This document shows positions 7,909-20,815 of a stretch of DNA of 64,000 bases, one piece after another. Below the pieces are notes generated by a model that was not told the origin of the DNA, ran no database searches, and saw only the letters and a program-made list of their open reading frames with translations. The DNA is from Pelolinea sp. (lineage in GTDB: Bacteria > Chloroflexota > Anaerolineae > Anaerolineales > Anaerolineaceae). The position numbers and the translations under genes were made by a program. How positions within the stretch are numbered: the stretch's first letter is position 1; each line of letters opens with the position of its first letter. The stretch is taken from assembly GCA_012797975.1 (NCBI GenBank), contig JAAZOD010000030.1, forward strand, positions 62,001 to 126,000, in the 5' to 3' direction.

Positions 7909-9393
7909 TTGGAGGGCATAAAACAGTCTATCTTGTTGCTTGGCGATCAAGCAGATTTTAGTGAACAAATATTTAAAATCGTTTGCGATAATGCATGGTG
8001 TGGATTAAATCTGATTCGATTAGAGAAGCGGATCGATGTTCAAAGAACACTGAAAACGAACAATATTTGTCTGATCCTTTTTTGTGTTAAGGACAGGCAG
8101 TATTTTGTCGATACCCTTAGTCTGGTGCAAAAATCAGGATACAGTGGTTCGTTAATTCCCATCACAAAGGGCAAAGATGCTGAAATTGCCGATCTGGCGC
8201 GGCAGCATGGCTTCGGGGATCCTTTATCGGCGGAAACGTTAACGGATTGCATCTTGTTGCAGGCCATCTTTTATACGATTGAAAAAAAGCGGATCTCGAA
8301 TGAAATCAGTGTTCGAGATGCGATTCTTCGTTCAGTGAATTTTGCTGCCGAAAATTTCCTGAACAACCCGGATTGGAAAATGCACATCAAAGAAGTATTG
8401 CAAAAAATTGCCGAAGCCAGCCGGGTGGATAGGGTTTTCCTCTATGAAAATATCTATGAAGATCAGAATCTAAAAAGCGCACGGCTGGTCGAACGATGGA
8501 TCGCTCCTGAAATTTCAGAAGAGCGGATTGCTGTACCGGGGGAAGAGCGGACATTTAAAGAAATGGGGTTGGAATCGTTTATCGAAGAGCTGCGAAATAC
8601 CCGCTATGTTAAATCACATGTTCGCGATCTGCCTAAAAAACTGCAGCCTTTATTCCGAATGATAAATGTTCAATCTATTCTCATCGTTTCCATTTTCACG
8701 AACGGTGATTGGTGGGGTTTTATCGGTTTTGATCAGTGTAAATATGAACGAGAATGGAAAACACTTGAAATCGAAGAATTGAAGACGGCCAGCAGCATTA
8801 TTTCAGCAGCCATCACCCGGCAGAAAACGGACGCGCGCTTGAAGTATCTGGCAACGCACGATTATTTGACGAATTTGCCGAACCGTCTGCTTTTTGAAGA
8901 TCATCTCCATGGTGCAATGGCGCGTTCCCAGCGCTCAAAAAAATGGGTTGGGTTGTATGTTATTGATCTGGACCATTTCAAGAAGGTAAATGATACCCAT
9001 GGTCATCCCTTTGGAGATAAGGTTCTCATCGAAGTGGGCAGGAGATTGCTGGGTGCCATTCGCTCCAGTGATACGGTTGCCCGGATCGGTGGTGACGAAT
9101 TTGTTGTGCTTGGGGAAGATCTTTCTTCAATGGATGATGTGAATCGGGTGGGGAACAAGATTCTCATTGCATTTAGCGAGCCAATTGTATGCGATAATAT
9201 TGATAATATTAAGGTTCAAATTACTCCTAGTGTCGGAATCAGCATCTATCCCGTGGATGGTGAGGATATGGAGAATTTGATGCGTTATGCTGATATCAGC
9301 CTGTACAGTGCAAAGAAGCAAGGAAATACCTTTAACGTTTATCAAGAAAGTGCAGGAAAACAATTATGGCTCGACAATTTACAAAAATTCTGA
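7909..9393 (+). CDS. Diguanylate cyclase with degenerate receiver, GAF and GGDEF domains
   Basis: Predicted to make cyclic-di-GMP from two GTP. An N-terminal CheY-like segment (about 7-115) lacks a clear phosphoacceptor aspartate pattern. It is followed by a GAF-like region (about 150-300) and a GGDEF domain (about 320-485) with an intact active site, ARIGGDEFVVLGED, and the usual NLPNR and HPFGDKVL motifs. No RxxD inhibitory site is evident directly upstream of GGDEF. The start is a TTG with GAGAGG five bases ahead; no ATG is available in frame before it. The 3' end overlaps the next gene by 28 bases, which suggests translational coupling. Confidence 0.9.
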   Translation: MEGIKQSILLLGDQADFSEQIFKIVCDNAWCGLNLIRLEKRIDVQRTLKTNNICLILFCVKDRQYFVDTLSLVQKSGYSGSLIPITKGKDAEIADLARQHGFGDPLSAETLTDCILLQAIFYTIEKKRISNEISVRDAILRSVNFAAENFLNNPDWKMHIKEVLQKIAEASRVDRVFLYENIYEDQNLKSARLVERWIAPEISEERIAVPGEERTFKEMGLESFIEELRNTRYVKSHVRDLPKKLQPLFRMINVQSILIVSIFTNGDWWGFIGFDQCKYEREWKTLEIEELKTASSIISAAITRQKTDARLKYLATHDYLTNLPNRLLFEDHLHGAMARSQRSKKWVGLYVIDLDHFKKVNDTHGHPFGDKVLIEVGRRLLGAIRSSDTVARIGGDEFVVLGEDLSSMDDVNRVGNKILIAFSEPIVCDNIDNIKVQITPSVGISIYPVDGEDMENLMRYADISLYSAKKQGNTFNVYQESAGKQLWLDNLQKF

Positions 9394-10439
9394 TCTGCAC
9401 AACGCATGAGAATGATGCCAAAAAGTATCACTCCTACCTGAAAAAAAATAGATCCCTTCGAACAGAAATAATAATTGAAACGACCCCCCAGAACTTGTTG
9501 CGCTCACTGGAAGGACGCGATGTTGATCTCCTTATTCTGGATCAGGATATCTATGGCTTGGAACCTGCCGATATTGCTGGGACATTGTTTAAAAAGGACA
9601 ATCGCATACCTTGTTTGATTATTTCAGATGAGAGTGTCACTCCATTTATCAAAGAATTGATCCAGCAGGATATTATTTTTTCGATTGTTGCGGAATCCTG
9701 GCTGGATGAAGACATATTCAATTGGTTCGTTCTCCGCTTGATCAATGCCCATAAAAAGAAAATAGAACATGAAAATTTGCATCAAACCGATCGCTCGCTG
9801 TTAAATAATATTCCCGGCATGGCATTTCGTCGCAGGAATGATAAATGGGGAACCCTTACCTATGTCAGTGATGGTTGCAAAGACCTTACCGGCTATACCG
9901 CTTCAGAATTGTTGAACAGTCAAACCATTTCCTACTTCAGTTTGATCCATCCGGATGACCGAAAAATGGTAAGAGATGCGGTGGCGTATCGGCTTTCCAG
10001 GAATTCCAATTATCAGATCAGTTACCGTATTCTCAGTGCTCACGATGGATTGAGATGGGTGCGCGAATCGGGGAGCAGCGCTCGCGCATCGGATTGGAAG
10101 GATCCGCAGATCGAAGGGCTGATTGTCGATATCTCTGACCAGATGAAGTTGATGGAAGAACATCAGAAAGACAAGGATGAGCTGCAAAAGATCTACGATT
10201 ATGTTTTTGCCGCCATTGGGATTATCGAAAAACGTACCTTTGTAGAAGTCAATGATTACTTCTGCAAGATGTTTGGTTATGATCGCTCGGAGATTATCGG
10301 TCAGAGCACCAGACTCCTTTATCAAAACGAGGAGGATTTTAACCGCTTTGGCCTTGAGAACAATCTGGAACTGGACAAAAAGGGTTTCGGAACTTTTTCC
10401 ACCCGTATAAGAAAAAAGATGGAAGTCTCTTGGATGTGA
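9366..10439 (+). CDS. PAS-domain sensor, 5' part of a frame-interrupted gene
   Basis: N-terminal 357 residues of a multi-domain sensor. Residues 1-130 form a receiver-like domain (ILICTTHENDA at the start, LLILDQDIYGLE near 57). A PAS domain with PAC follows (about 140-260), then a second PAS (about 270-345) that breaks off abruptly. The last residues RIRKKMEVSWM are out of frame: the expected PAS ending, KKDGSLLDVIVTT, lies in the -1 frame immediately downstream. The junction sits on an A AAA AAG heptamer (10412-10418). Read as one protein with the next reading frame it would be about 857 residues. The start ATG lies inside the GGDEF gene, with AGGA eight bases ahead. It is either a frameshift mutant, a sequencing error, or a programmed -1 frameshift. 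Confidence 0.75.
   Translation: MARQFTKILICTTHENDAKKYHSYLKKNRSLRTEIIIETTPQNLLRSLEGRDVDLLILDQDIYGLEPADIAGTLFKKDNRIPCLIISDESVTPFIKELIQQDIIFSIVAESWLDEDIFNWFVLRLINAHKKKIEHENLHQTDRSLLNNIPGMAFRRRNDKWGTLTYVSDGCKDLTGYTASELLNSQTISYFSLIHPDDRKMVRDAVAYRLSRNSNYQISYRILSAHDGLRWVRESGSSARASDWKDPQIEGLIVDISDQMKLMEEHQKDKDELQKIYDYVFAAIGIIEKRTFVEVNDYFCKMFGYDRSEIIGQSTRLLYQNEEDFNRFGLENNLELDKKGFGTFSTRIRKKMEVSWM
10412..10418 (+). other. A AAA AAG slippery heptamer at the frame junction
   Basis: In the zero frame the codons are AGA AAA AAG ATG, so the heptamer A AAA AAG is correctly phased for -1 slippage, as in bacterial dnaX. After a -1 slip the next codons are GAT GGA AGT CTC TTG GAT GTG, giving KKDGSLLDV, which restores a normal PAS sequence. 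I see no strong Shine-Dalgarno stimulator upstream. Only a weak 5-bp stem is visible downstream (GATGT at 10433 with ACATC at 10448). Confidence 0.55.
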
Positions 10440-11941
10440 TTGTTACGACATCGCGTTTTTCTCAAAATGATCGGGAAGGTCCTGTTTCTTTTGTGATCAT
10501 GGATATTTCAGAACAGGTCAAGACGAAACAATTACTCCAGGAGAACGAAGAAAAACGCAACTTGCTTATTCAACACATGAGTGAAGGCATCTTTTTTTCG
10601 GATGAAAAGGGGATGGTTTTGGAATGGAGTGATTCATTGGAAAGAATGATCGCCATTCCGCGAGAAGAAGTAGTGGGTGTCCCTTTCGATGCCATGATCG
10701 ACCGGCTGATCGACCGAAGGATCGTAAAGGTTGATGGCGAAAAAGCCAAGCAATTTCTAAGGCAGGCCTTTGAAGATCGAAAAAAAGAAAGGTTCAATAC
10801 GATTTGGGAAGGGGAAATGCTTACCCCACAGGGTGATTACCAAACCTTTCTTGCAGAACTTTTTATCTTCCAATCACCAAAGGGCAACGGCCTGGCGATC
10901 ATTGTGCGGAATATTGATGCTCAAAAGAAACATGAAAAAGAACTGCAATTGATGGCAGATTTGACTGCCGTGATCCGAAAATGTGAGAATGATGCTGTGC
11001 TGGTTCGAAAATCTGTTATCGACATTTTGATGAGTTCTCTGAACCTGGATGGCATCGCCATGGCATCATTCGTTGATAATGGGGATGGGGGGACCATTGT
11101 TGAGGCCCGTGGCAGATTTGCCGAGAAGATCGGTACAAAAATTTCATGGAAAAACTGCATTGAACAGGCATCCCTTTATGGCGACAGTATTTTTGAGATT
11201 GGTGCAAACTGTCTTGAAAAGCTTTGCCCCGATAAAGAATTTATCGAATTGCCTAAAACTAGGATCAGCATTTCCCTCGTCATTGGTCGTGACCGTGTGG
11301 GTATGATCTTTGCATTTCATAAGGAACGTTTTTCTGAATATGAATATCGATTGTTGGATGCGGTTGGGAATGTGGCGGCCGTTGCTTTGAACCAGGCTAT
11401 GACATTTGAACGAACAGAATTGCGTTTGAAGCGATTGGAGTCTTTACATGTCATCGATCAGGCAATCAGCGGCTTGTTCAATCTTGACCTCACCAATCGC
11501 ATCATCCTGGATCAGGCAAAACAGCAACTTGGAGCGGATGCGGGTGATATCCTCATCCTCAATATGGCAACGAATATGATGGAATACTCTGCTATCTTTG
11601 GTTTTGACCATCTTGATGTGGAAGAGAAAAGGGTTCACCTCAGCCGCAGTATGGCTGGACAAATATTGTTGAATCGGGAACCCTGTGTCGTTTCCGACAT
11701 CAGCAAACATGAACTGCCGTTTATTATGAAGCATTTGCAACGCCATAGCTTTCATGCCTATTTTGGTTTCCCGCTCATTGCCAAAGGGGAGCCGAAAGGG
11801 GTGATGGAGATTTATATGCAAACGCCTTTTCAACCGGATACCGAATGGTTGAATTTCCTTCAGTCTCTGGCAACCCAATCGAGCATCGCCATCGATAATA
11901 TTCAACTCTTTGAAAAAATGCAAAGCATGCAGTATTTTTAG
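10430..11941 (+). CDS. PAS-GAF-GAF sensor, 3' part of the frame-interrupted gene; lacks an output domain
   Basis: Continuation of the preceding reading frame. The nominal TTG start has no ribosome-binding site and begins in the middle of a PAS domain, so it is probably not a real start. It contains the PAS/PAC end (VIMDISEQVK), another PAS (about 35-165), a GAF (about 175-330) and a second GAF (about 340-495). The protein stops at IDNIQLFEKMQSMQYF, the position where the neighbouring HD-GYP protein continues from a similar helix into its catalytic domain. No HD-GYP, GGDEF, EAL or kinase domain follows, so the enzymatic output seems to have been lost. Confidence refers to the coding content, not to it being an independent gene. 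Confidence 0.7.
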   Translation: MDVIVTTSRFSQNDREGPVSFVIMDISEQVKTKQLLQENEEKRNLLIQHMSEGIFFSDEKGMVLEWSDSLERMIAIPREEVVGVPFDAMIDRLIDRRIVKVDGEKAKQFLRQAFEDRKKERFNTIWEGEMLTPQGDYQTFLAELFIFQSPKGNGLAIIVRNIDAQKKHEKELQLMADLTAVIRKCENDAVLVRKSVIDILMSSLNLDGIAMASFVDNGDGGTIVEARGRFAEKIGTKISWKNCIEQASLYGDSIFEIGANCLEKLCPDKEFIELPKTRISISLVIGRDRVGMIFAFHKERFSEYEYRLLDAVGNVAAVALNQAMTFERTELRLKRLESLHVIDQAISGLFNLDLTNRIILDQAKQQLGADAGDILILNMATNMMEYSAIFGFDHLDVEEKRVHLSRSMAGQILLNREPCVVSDISKHELPFIMKHLQRHSFHAYFGFPLIAKGEPKGVMEIYMQTPFQPDTEWLNFLQSLATQSSIAIDNIQLFEKMQSMQYF

Positions 11942-12003: not shown

Positions 12004-12207
12004 ATGGAATGCGAACAAGAAAATAATCAAACGGGGTGCAATTGCAGTTATGAACCCTGTTCCCGCAAAGGAATTTGCTGCGAATGTGTACGCTACCACG
12101 TCCGTGTGCGAGAGCTTCCGGCCTGTTGTTTCCCGAATGAGGTTGAAAAGACCTACGATAGTTCTTTTGAGAGGTTCGCTGACCTTGTTGTATCTGGTAA
12201 GATATGA
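12004..12207 (+). CDS. Cysteine-rich DUF6485 family protein
   Basis: Small cytosolic protein of 67 residues with seven cysteines in the first half ([21 protein letters not shown]) and a conserved LPACCFP and EKTYDSS tail, matching the DUF6485 family seen in anaerobes. I chose the ATG at 12004, which has GGAG five bases upstream; a longer reading from 11977 has no such site. The cysteine spacing suggests metal or Fe-S binding, but no function is known. It follows the broken sensor gene by 62 bases and precedes a membrane glycosyltransferase. Confidence 0.82.
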
Positions 12208-19245: not shown

Positions 19246-19995
19246 ATGCCTATAGCAATCAAAAGTAAAAAACTTTATTCGGAAATACTGGGTGTTTCTT
19301 CGGATCAAATTGGTAAATATGTGCTTTTGCCGGGTGATCCGGCGCGTGTGCCTTTTTTGGCTAGCTTTTTTGCGGATGTGCACGCCGTGGCTGAAAAGTG
19401 GACCCATGTCACCTATACCGGCACTTTGAATGGTCAAAAAGCATCGGTGGTGTCCACCGGCATGGGCTGCCCGGCTATGGCCACCACACTGGAGGAATTG
19501 ATCCGTTTAGGCGCACATACCTTTATTCGGGTGGGCACTTCCGGCACCATCCAGTGGAAAACCGATCCGTCCGATCTGATCATCACCTGGGCGGCTGCAC
19601 GGGATGAAAGGACCTCCTTACGCTACCAGCCCATTTCTTTTCCGGCGGTTGCAGATGTGGATGTGACAACGGCATTGATGAATGCTGCCAGCGCTCTCTC
19701 ATTGGGGCATCAGGTCGGCATATCACAATCCAAGGATGCTTTCTATGGGGAGCATGATCCGTTGGGGATGATCGGTTCTCATGCATTGCTGGAAAAACAA
19801 AAATCTTTTGAACGGGCCGGCATGCTGTGCAGCGAGATGGAAGTATCGACCTTGTTTGTGATCAGTTCGGTTCGCTCGGTGCGGGCAGGAGGGATCATGA
19901 TGCTGGGCGGAAGCAAACCGGAAACTTTGCAGAATGTGTCAAAAGTTTGTGCAGAGGCATTGAAATTATTGGTCCAGTGGGATAAAGGATCATAA
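19246..19995 (+). CDS. Nucleoside phosphorylase (uridine phosphorylase type)
   Basis: Member of the PNP/UDP family that splits nucleosides with phosphate into base and ribose-1-phosphate. The phosphate-binding PGDPARV motif (about 31), STGMGCPAMATTLEEL (about 69) and RVGTSGTI (about 95) are in place. The ribose-binding Glu-Met-Glu is present in CSEMEVSTLF, pointing to a working uridine-phosphorylase-like enzyme. I chose the ATG at 19246, preceded by GGGAG with five-base spacing; the longer frame from 19168 has a non-conserved, hydrophobic extension. The product is 249 residues. A diverged paralogue follows 16 bases later. Confidence 0.85.
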   Translation: MPIAIKSKKLYSEILGVSSDQIGKYVLLPGDPARVPFLASFFADVHAVAEKWTHVTYTGTLNGQKASVVSTGMGCPAMATTLEELIRLGAHTFIRVGTSGTIQWKTDPSDLIITWAAARDERTSLRYQPISFPAVADVDVTTALMNAASALSLGHQVGISQSKDAFYGEHDPLGMIGSHALLEKQKSFERAGMLCSEMEVSTLFVISSVRSVRAGGIMMLGGSKPETLQNVSKVCAEALKLLVQWDKGS

Positions 19996-20011
19996 AGAGG
20001 TATATCGCACC

Positions 20012-20815
20012 ATGACTATCAAAACATCCTACTCAAATTTTGTCTATCGACTGTATTCTTTCAACTTGCGATATCGAAAATTGGTTTGCTGGTGGAACAA
20101 TGATGTTCTGAAGAAAAAACAGTACCACATTGGGTTGAGAAAAGGAGAAGGAAGTGCCAATGTGGTGATGGTTGAAACACCAGCCCAGGTGCGCCAGCTT
20201 GCAGAACACTTTCACGATTCGACGATTTTGGCTGATCATCGAGAATACTTGAGCATGCTGATCAAAACCCCTGCTGCGCAATTTTTAGCCATTTCAACTG
20301 GCATCGGGACCCCGCCCATCGCCATTGGGATGGAGGAATTGGCGATCATCGGCGCACAGCGTTTTGTGTATATTGGCTCCTGCAAACCAGTTTCACCCAT
20401 GTTGAAAGAAGGCGATCTTTTCGTGGTGAAAGCGACTGTCAAAGAGGATGGTACCAGCCGCGAATATTTGCCAAGCATCATCCCGGCGGTGGGGGATGTG
20501 GGATTGATCAATGAAGTGCGATCGGTTTTGAAAAAAGCCGCCGTTCCTTTTCAGGTGGGAATCAGCGTTACGGTCGACCTTGATCCATACCACCTTTCAG
20601 AGCAGATTCCTTTAAAGCAGCAGTATGAGCAGCAAATGGAAGTGTTGAAAGCGGGCAGCGCGCTGGCGATAGACCGCGCAGCGGCTGGAGTGTATGCAGT
20701 GGCAACCAAAGTTCATAAACCTGCCTGTTGTATTTTGATGGCTGCGGAAGCCGAATCAGAATTGCCGTCGAACCTGATTGACACGCTTCCGGATCTTTTT
20801 TCAAAAGATTGTTAA
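20012..20815 (+). CDS. Diverged nucleoside phosphorylase paralogue, probably altered activity
   Basis: Second PNP/UDP-family protein in tandem with the uridine phosphorylase. The core STGIGTPPIAIGMEEL and the VYIGSCKPV strand are clear. The N-terminal phosphate-binding GDPxR motif is replaced by VMVETPAQV, and the ribose-binding MEM/EME segment reads AIDRAAAGVY. Key ligands therefore appear to be missing. It also has an N-terminal aromatic-rich extension of about 35 residues. It could be a regulatory or inactive partner of the upstream enzyme or act on a different ligand. The 16-base spacing suggests one operon. Confidence 0.7.
   Translation: MTIKTSYSNFVYRLYSFNLRYRKLVCWWNNDVLKKKQYHIGLRKGEGSANVVMVETPAQVRQLAEHFHDSTILADHREYLSMLIKTPAAQFLAISTGIGTPPIAIGMEELAIIGAQRFVYIGSCKPVSPMLKEGDLFVVKATVKEDGTSREYLPSIIPAVGDVGLINEVRSVLKKAAVPFQVGISVTVDLDPYHLSEQIPLKQQYEQQMEVLKAGSALAIDRAAAGVYAVATKVHKPACCILMAAEAESELPSNLIDTLPDLFSKDC

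What the first reader, a model, noticed from the sequence alone, without database searches (positions are those of the whole stretch)
9366..11941. PAS/GAF sensor gene interrupted exactly at an A AAA AAG slippery heptamer
Two reading frames overlap with the junction inside one PAS domain. A -1 slip at 10412-10418 restores KKDGSLLDV, the expected PAS ending. The heptamer is in the correct phase, as in dnaX. A programmed -1 frameshift would be striking; a homopolymer error or a mutation is the plain alternative.
Basis: partly seen in the sequence, partly recalled or inferred. Interest (0 to 1): 0.6.

Follow-up and report, generated by a model that had tools for sequence, protein, structure and literature searches.

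The report
Sensor gene with one-base frame break
A bacterial sensor gene is split into two reading frames by what is most likely one missing base in a run of A's, an ordinary sequencing slip or recent mutation, with no sign found that the cell shifts frame there on purpose.

Summary
Two overlapping plus-strand frames (9366-10439 and 10358-11941) meet at A AAA AAG (10412-10418) in the stated phase, and a -1 step joins them into one full-length PAS domain. They are one gene: in two of four other same-genus genomes the orthologue is a single 736-codon frame in the same operon, behind a GAF-GGDEF gene. Those orthologues lack the PAS domain (PAS2) that carries the break, so the site itself cannot be compared. 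A profile of eight chosen PAS2 relatives places the break at 10403-10418, which contains the A run. None of the eight has more than four A's in a row there.

Evidence for a programmed frameshift was not found: no Shine-Dalgarno-like stimulator, no unusual downstream structure, no conserved site. Losing one base from a suitably phased A7 run leaves A AAA AAG by itself (8 of 26 A7 runs sampled), so correct phase is weak evidence. The frame after the break stays conserved (last GAF 74-88% identical), so the break is recent, an assembly error, or bypassed.

Best reading: a non-programmed one-base indel in a homopolymer. Error and real mutation cannot be separated without reads. Recoding is not excluded (about 5%).

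The parts
7909..9393 (+). Upstream operon gene: GAF-GGDEF protein (predicted diguanylate cyclase), 494 aa; overlaps ORF1 by 28 nt
   Evidence: ORF; Pfam GGDEF 145.2 bits, GAF 26.7 bits; same pair and 28-nt overlap in G001 and G002
9366..10439 (+). ORF1: receiver-like N-terminus, PAS1 and first part of PAS2; 357 aa, ends TGA
   Evidence: Response_reg 21.0 bits is below Pfam's cut-off of 30.2
10358..11941 (+). ORF2 open frame (-1 relative to ORF1): end of PAS2, PAS3, GAF region; first ATG/GTG/TTG start codon is TTG 10430
10224..10513 (+). PAS2, the PAS domain that spans the frame break; absent from the two same-genus orthologues
   Evidence: PAS_9 match on the read-through protein, converted by hand to window coordinates; absence read from the proteins
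10412..10418 (+). A AAA AAG heptamer, in phase with ORF1; likely site of the one-base break
10436..10439 (+). GTGA: ORF2-frame GTG overlapping ORF1 stop TGA (possible reinitiation site)
11498..11896 (+). C-terminal GAF domain, the best conserved part of the gene although downstream of the break
   Evidence: GAF_2 62.4 bits; last three 60-residue windows 74-88% identical to G001 and G002

Best explanation
One ordinary sensor gene (receiver-like N-terminus, PAS, extra PAS, PAS, GAF region) sits behind a diguanylate cyclase gene in a Chloroflexi bacterium (lineage inferred from the record title of a same-genus contig). Its frame is broken by a non-programmed one-base indel, most likely in the A run at 10412-10417. 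The indel is either a sequencing or assembly error (my estimate about 0.48) or a real recent mutation (about 0.40). If it is an error, the cell makes one protein of 858 residues that probably modulates the neighbouring GGDEF enzyme. If it is real, the cell mainly makes a truncated 357-residue protein and ORF2 is read only through occasional slippage or restarts. Shown: one gene, one break, conserved downstream frame. Inferred: cause, consequences and function.
For: Two of four other same-genus genomes hold the orthologue as one uninterrupted 736-codon frame in the same operon. The joined frames give a full PAS domain. No stimulators found: 82 nt after the site z -0.85 with 35 of 200 shuffles as stable; 48 nt z 0.04; 20-55% of same-length windows in the gene are as stable, and none of five SD-like patterns lies upstream. 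0 of 8 chosen PAS2 relatives have an A run longer than 4 at the site. Deleting one base from an A7 run gives the in-phase heptamer in 8 of 26 cases. Past the break the gene shows the same codon-position pattern as its intact neighbour: 0.33/0.22/0.62 differences at positions 1/2/3 against 0.35/0.24/0.60, versus G001, with no further stop up to 11939. The GeneTack survey (PMC3711429; passages and section 29 read) expects unclustered frame breaks confirmed by homology to be sequencing errors or indels.
Against: With stimulators, A AAA AAG is among the most efficient shift motifs in E. coli (PMC4066793, section 17 read). The conserved downstream frame is also what a working frameshift would give. 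A/T runs of 6-8 are about as common here as in G001 and G002, so there is no sign of genome-wide homopolymer compression; this speaks against a systematic sequencing fault. A small homology survey (24,669 bases) found no other real break. No orthologue has the site, so the indel is not shown by direct comparison.
Confidence: 0.88

Rival explanations
1. Programmed or corrective -1 ribosomal frameshifting at A AAA AAG makes two products, a 357-residue truncated protein and an 858-residue fusion.
For: In-phase heptamer within the profile-supported junction zone, with the ORF1 stop 18 nt after it. Conserved downstream frame. This genome's dnaX also has an in-phase heptamer with a -1 stop right after it.
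Against: No SD-like or structural stimulator found (pseudoknots not tested). A run absent in the 8 PAS2 relatives examined. The break lies inside a domain, so the 0-frame product ends in a broken PAS. Without stimulators, the E. coli motifs that scored positive raised shifting only 2.1-10 fold over a background of 0.055% (PMC4066793), which would give very little full-length protein. The dnaX site is not conserved in the lineage.
Confidence: 0.05
2. Translational coupling: ORF2 is a separate gene restarted at GTG 10436 (GTGA overlap) or TTG 10430, and the two proteins act together.
For: GTGA stop-start overlap. Overlapping genes occur in this operon (28 nt between the GGDEF gene and ORF1). A partial SD-like GGAAG lies at 10421-10425. 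The codon-usage scan alone does not separate this site from ordinary gene joints.
Against: It would split one PAS domain between two polypeptides. The orthologues are one protein.
Confidence: 0.03
3. RNA polymerase slippage on the A run, or phase variation by replication slippage, restores the frame in part of the transcripts or cells.
For: It is an A run, and tssM of Citrobacter rodentium is rescued this way at 11 A's (PMC4256274, passages read).
Against: Six A's is short. Selection against slippage-prone runs becomes evident at nine in a large proportion of genomes (PMC1088944, passages read). Six-base A/T runs are common here, 132.5 per 100 kb.
Confidence: 0.03

Closest known systems
Singleton frameshifted genes in prokaryotic assemblies (GeneTack survey, PMC3711429)
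   Same: One isolated frame change confirmed by homology, no conserved counterpart found, near a homopolymer
   Different: GeneTack itself was not run here; a draft assembly in 35 contigs rather than a complete genome
dnaX -1 programmed frameshift (E. coli type; elements as in PMC3711429 passages)
   Same: Same A AAA AAG heptamer in the same phase
   Different: No upstream SD-like element or unusual downstream hairpin found; in dnaX the shift shortens the product, here it would lengthen it; no conservation found
Citrobacter rodentium tssM poly-A slippage (PMC4256274, passages read)
   Same: A frame-broken gene with an A run just before the premature stop
   Different: 11 A's there against 6 here; there both products were shown, here none

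Membership tests
-1 programmed ribosomal frameshift (dnaX type) | In-phase slippery heptamer between 0-frame ORF and overlapping -1 frame | tested here: met
-1 programmed ribosomal frameshift (dnaX type) | Upstream SD-like stimulator | tested here: not met
   Five SD-like patterns searched in the stretch before the motif, none found
-1 programmed ribosomal frameshift (dnaX type) | Stable downstream stem-loop or pseudoknot | tested here: not met
   Stem-loop: z -0.85 and 0.04; 20-55% of gene windows as stable. Pseudoknots were not tested
-1 programmed ribosomal frameshift (dnaX type) | Site and frame arrangement conserved across species | tested here: inconclusive
   Orthologues lack the domain; 0 of 8 chosen PAS2 relatives have the A run, but they are not orthologues; no same-species second assembly found
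-1 programmed ribosomal frameshift (dnaX type) | Fusion product made in cells | not testable with these tools
   needs proteomics or a reporter
Non-programmed homopolymer indel | Single frame change in an otherwise intact gene whose orthologues are uninterrupted | tested here: met
Non-programmed homopolymer indel | Break located in a homopolymer | tested here: inconclusive
   Profile places it at 10403-10418, which contains the A run, with its maximum at 10406; exact base not resolved
Non-programmed homopolymer indel | Reads or related strains show a different run length | not testable with these tools
   no reads held; no same-species assembly found
PAS domain (PF13426, TIGR00229) | Profile match over the whole domain above the curated cut-off | tested here: met
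   Read-through protein: 47.0 bits against cut-off 27, 7-103/103; 56.8 against 22.9

The most novel reading that the evidence does not exclude
The break is real and fixed, and slippage on A AAA AAG without classical stimulators sets a low ratio of full-length to truncated sensor, tuning a c-di-GMP operon in a lineage whose copy carries an extra PAS domain.
Probability: 0.05. Interest if true: 0.6.

Novelty: already known. Interest (0 to 1): 0.12.

Why it matters
As it stands it matters mainly as a caution. An in-phase slippery heptamer at a frame break looks like strong evidence for programmed frameshifting, but losing one base from a suitably phased A run creates exactly that pattern. If it were a true programmed shift, it would be an unusual case of recoding in a bacterial sensor gene of a c-di-GMP operon.

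Tried and rejected
The codon-usage Viterbi scan of 98,874 bases of the contig gave 8 same-strand direct frame switches, this site among them. The next ORF's first start codon lies from 5 nt before to 34 nt after the switch in the other seven and 40 nt after it here, so the scan does not single the site out; homology does. The wider scan of 458,874 bases in 426 coding segments raised 7 'frame break' flags and many same-frame neighbour flags. None was followed up, and the scan did not flag this site at its thresholds, so I claim no background rate from it.

Homology survey: 236 relative ORFs against the own stretches covered 24,669 bases, all on contig C13, at 45% identity or more. It flagged one split (window 19827-20800), spurious on inspection because the query ran upstream of its likely start over the preceding gene. 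It did not flag the present break, because the orthologues lack PAS2.

The profile used eight PAS domains that I chose from the hits; more distant hits, second PAS domains of the same proteins and one near-copy (L079) were left out.

The own-genome search for AAAAAARAYGG (21 places) gave nothing decisive. Searches in viral contigs for relatives and for this exact site with a variable run, for similar DNA in the genus (5 genomes including the own) and for relatives in genome contigs (one relative) gave no second copy of this locus.

Paper search for PAS domain, programmed ribosomal frameshifting, sensor and slippery (45 papers with at least 3 terms, 15 listed; titles and abstract starts seen) showed no such case among those listed. 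PMC5009743: passages seen. PMC7038595: search listing only; the isolate label of the G001 contig occurs in it once.

Full report
What is there. ORF1 (9366-10439, 357 aa) and the ORF2 frame (open 10358-11941) overlap on the plus strand. Bases 10412-10418 are AAAAAAG in phase A AAA AAG relative to ORF1, and the -1 frame continues K K D G S L L D V. The ORF1 stop lies at 10437-10439. Read through, the gene would encode 858 residues.

One gene, one PAS domain. The read-through of the junction matches PAS_9 from position 7 to 103 of 103 at 47.0 bits. The ORF1 part alone matches 6-46 at 31.5 bits and the ORF2 part alone does not match up to E = 1. TIGR00229 gives 56.8 bits joined against 32.8 and 19.7. 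TIGR00229 places the junction poorly: of ten junctions tested, seven from 10364 to 10418 give 53.8-56.8 bits, the next 52.9, and the last two 42.4-42.7. A profile made from eight relatives of this PAS, chosen from the hits, gives 120.0-122.3 bits for junctions 10403-10418 with the maximum at 10406, 114.3 at 10421, and 102.2-117.1 for all others of the 25 tested. The closest relatives read GT.ETRW(R/Q)RKDG where the window reads GTFSTRIRKKDG. The A run is therefore the likely site, though not proven to the base.

Orthologues. G001 carries the locus on a contig of the same length as JAAZOK010000171.1 (MAG: Chloroflexi bacterium isolate AS27yjCOA_56), with identical DNA for the gene. There and in G002 a GAF-GGDEF gene overlaps by 28 nt a single uninterrupted 736-codon gene beginning MAR..SKILI.TT and ending in the same GAF region, as in the window. 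G003 and G004, which are incomplete (80% and 85%), gave no DNA match. The G001 orthologue has PAS_3, a second PAS and GAF domains but both orthologues lack the PAS2 that carries the break. This is a result against a clean test: no orthologue has the site.

Selection. After PAS2 the window gene is 55.7% and 54.9% identical to the orthologues, with differences of 0.33-0.34/0.22/0.61-0.62 at codon positions 1/2/3. The intact neighbouring GGDEF gene shows 0.35-0.37/0.24-0.25/0.60-0.63. The last three 60-residue windows are 74-88% identical, the other five 30-53%. The frame downstream of the break has thus been under purifying selection, at least until recently (inference). This fits an assembly error, a recent mutation, or an effective bypass.

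Is the heptamer evidence of design? In simulated one-base losses in 77 ORFs, A AAA AA[AG] lay in phase and in reach after 300 of 11762 random losses, 15 of 169 losses in homopolymers of six or more, and 8 of 26 losses in A7 runs. Any X XXY YYZ lay in reach after 2706 of 11762, 60 of 169 and 16 of 26. Of 26 A7 runs, 8 begin at codon position 3 and are followed by G, the commonest arrangement. Losing one A from such a run gives the observed kind of site by itself. The coincidence raises the odds for recoding only moderately.

Signals for a programmed shift. None of five SD-like patterns lies upstream. The downstream 82 nt fold at -19.1 kcal/mol (z -0.85, 35 of 200 shuffles as good) and 48 nt at -7.1 (z 0.04). 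20-55% of windows in the gene are as stable. Pseudoknots were not tested. None of the eight PAS2 relatives has more than four A's in a row at the site. In E. coli, A_AA.A_AA.G is among the most efficient motifs with stimulators; without them, positive motifs were 2.1-10 times their no-motif controls, whose average was 0.055% (PMC4066793 section 17). The value for this motif alone was not in the text I saw.

Error or mutation? I cannot decide. A/T runs of 6, 7 and 8 occur at 132.5, 41.2 and 8.9 per 100 kb in 458,874 bases of this genome, against 122.5, 35.0 and 15.0 in 40,000 bases of G001 and 142.5, 20.0 and 15.0 in 40,000 bases of G002. This shows no general compression of runs. The homology survey found no other genuine break in 24,669 bases. 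My estimates are about 0.48 for error and 0.40 for real indel. The remainder goes to programmed frameshifting, coupling at the GTGA overlap, and transcriptional slippage or phase variation.

Literature. The GeneTack survey (PMC3711429; passages and section 29) treats unclustered, homology-confirmed frame breaks as sequencing errors or indels, and lists A_AAA_AAG among its consensus heptamers in clusters. Selection against slippage-prone runs becomes evident at nine bases in a large proportion of genomes (PMC1088944, passages); an 11-A rescue is described in PMC4256274 (passages).

The odds were only made to add up (0.48 and 0.40).

Noticed in passing
L039:2663-2675 (G000 contig C15, outside the window): dnaX has in-phase A AAA AAG followed by AGTGA, so a -1 slip gives K K E stop, the E. 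coli gamma layout (recalled). In-phase A AAA AA[AG] sites more than 250 codons after the Walker motif occur in 7 of 28 dnaX frames read from 30 loci, 4 with a -1 stop within 8 codons; of the other four same-genus genomes one has a site, and its -1 frame stays open for 57 codons.
   Followed up: partly
10224-10513: The gene has an extra PAS domain relative to the two same-genus orthologues (858 against 736 residues); gain or loss was not polarised.
   Followed up: partly
458,874 bases sampled from the own genome, including the window: A/T runs drop sharply between 8 and 9 bases: 8.9 per 100 kb at length 8, 0.2 at 9, none at 10 to 13. The 40,000-base samples of G001 and G002 have none at 9 to 13.
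   Followed up: no
11498-11896: The C-terminal GAF region is far more conserved (74-88%) than the other ORF2 windows (30-53%), although Pfam shows no output domain after it.
   Followed up: no
12004-12207: A small cysteine-rich ORF of 67 aa follows the gene and matches Pfam DUF6485 (45.2 bits, cut-off 24).
   Followed up: partly
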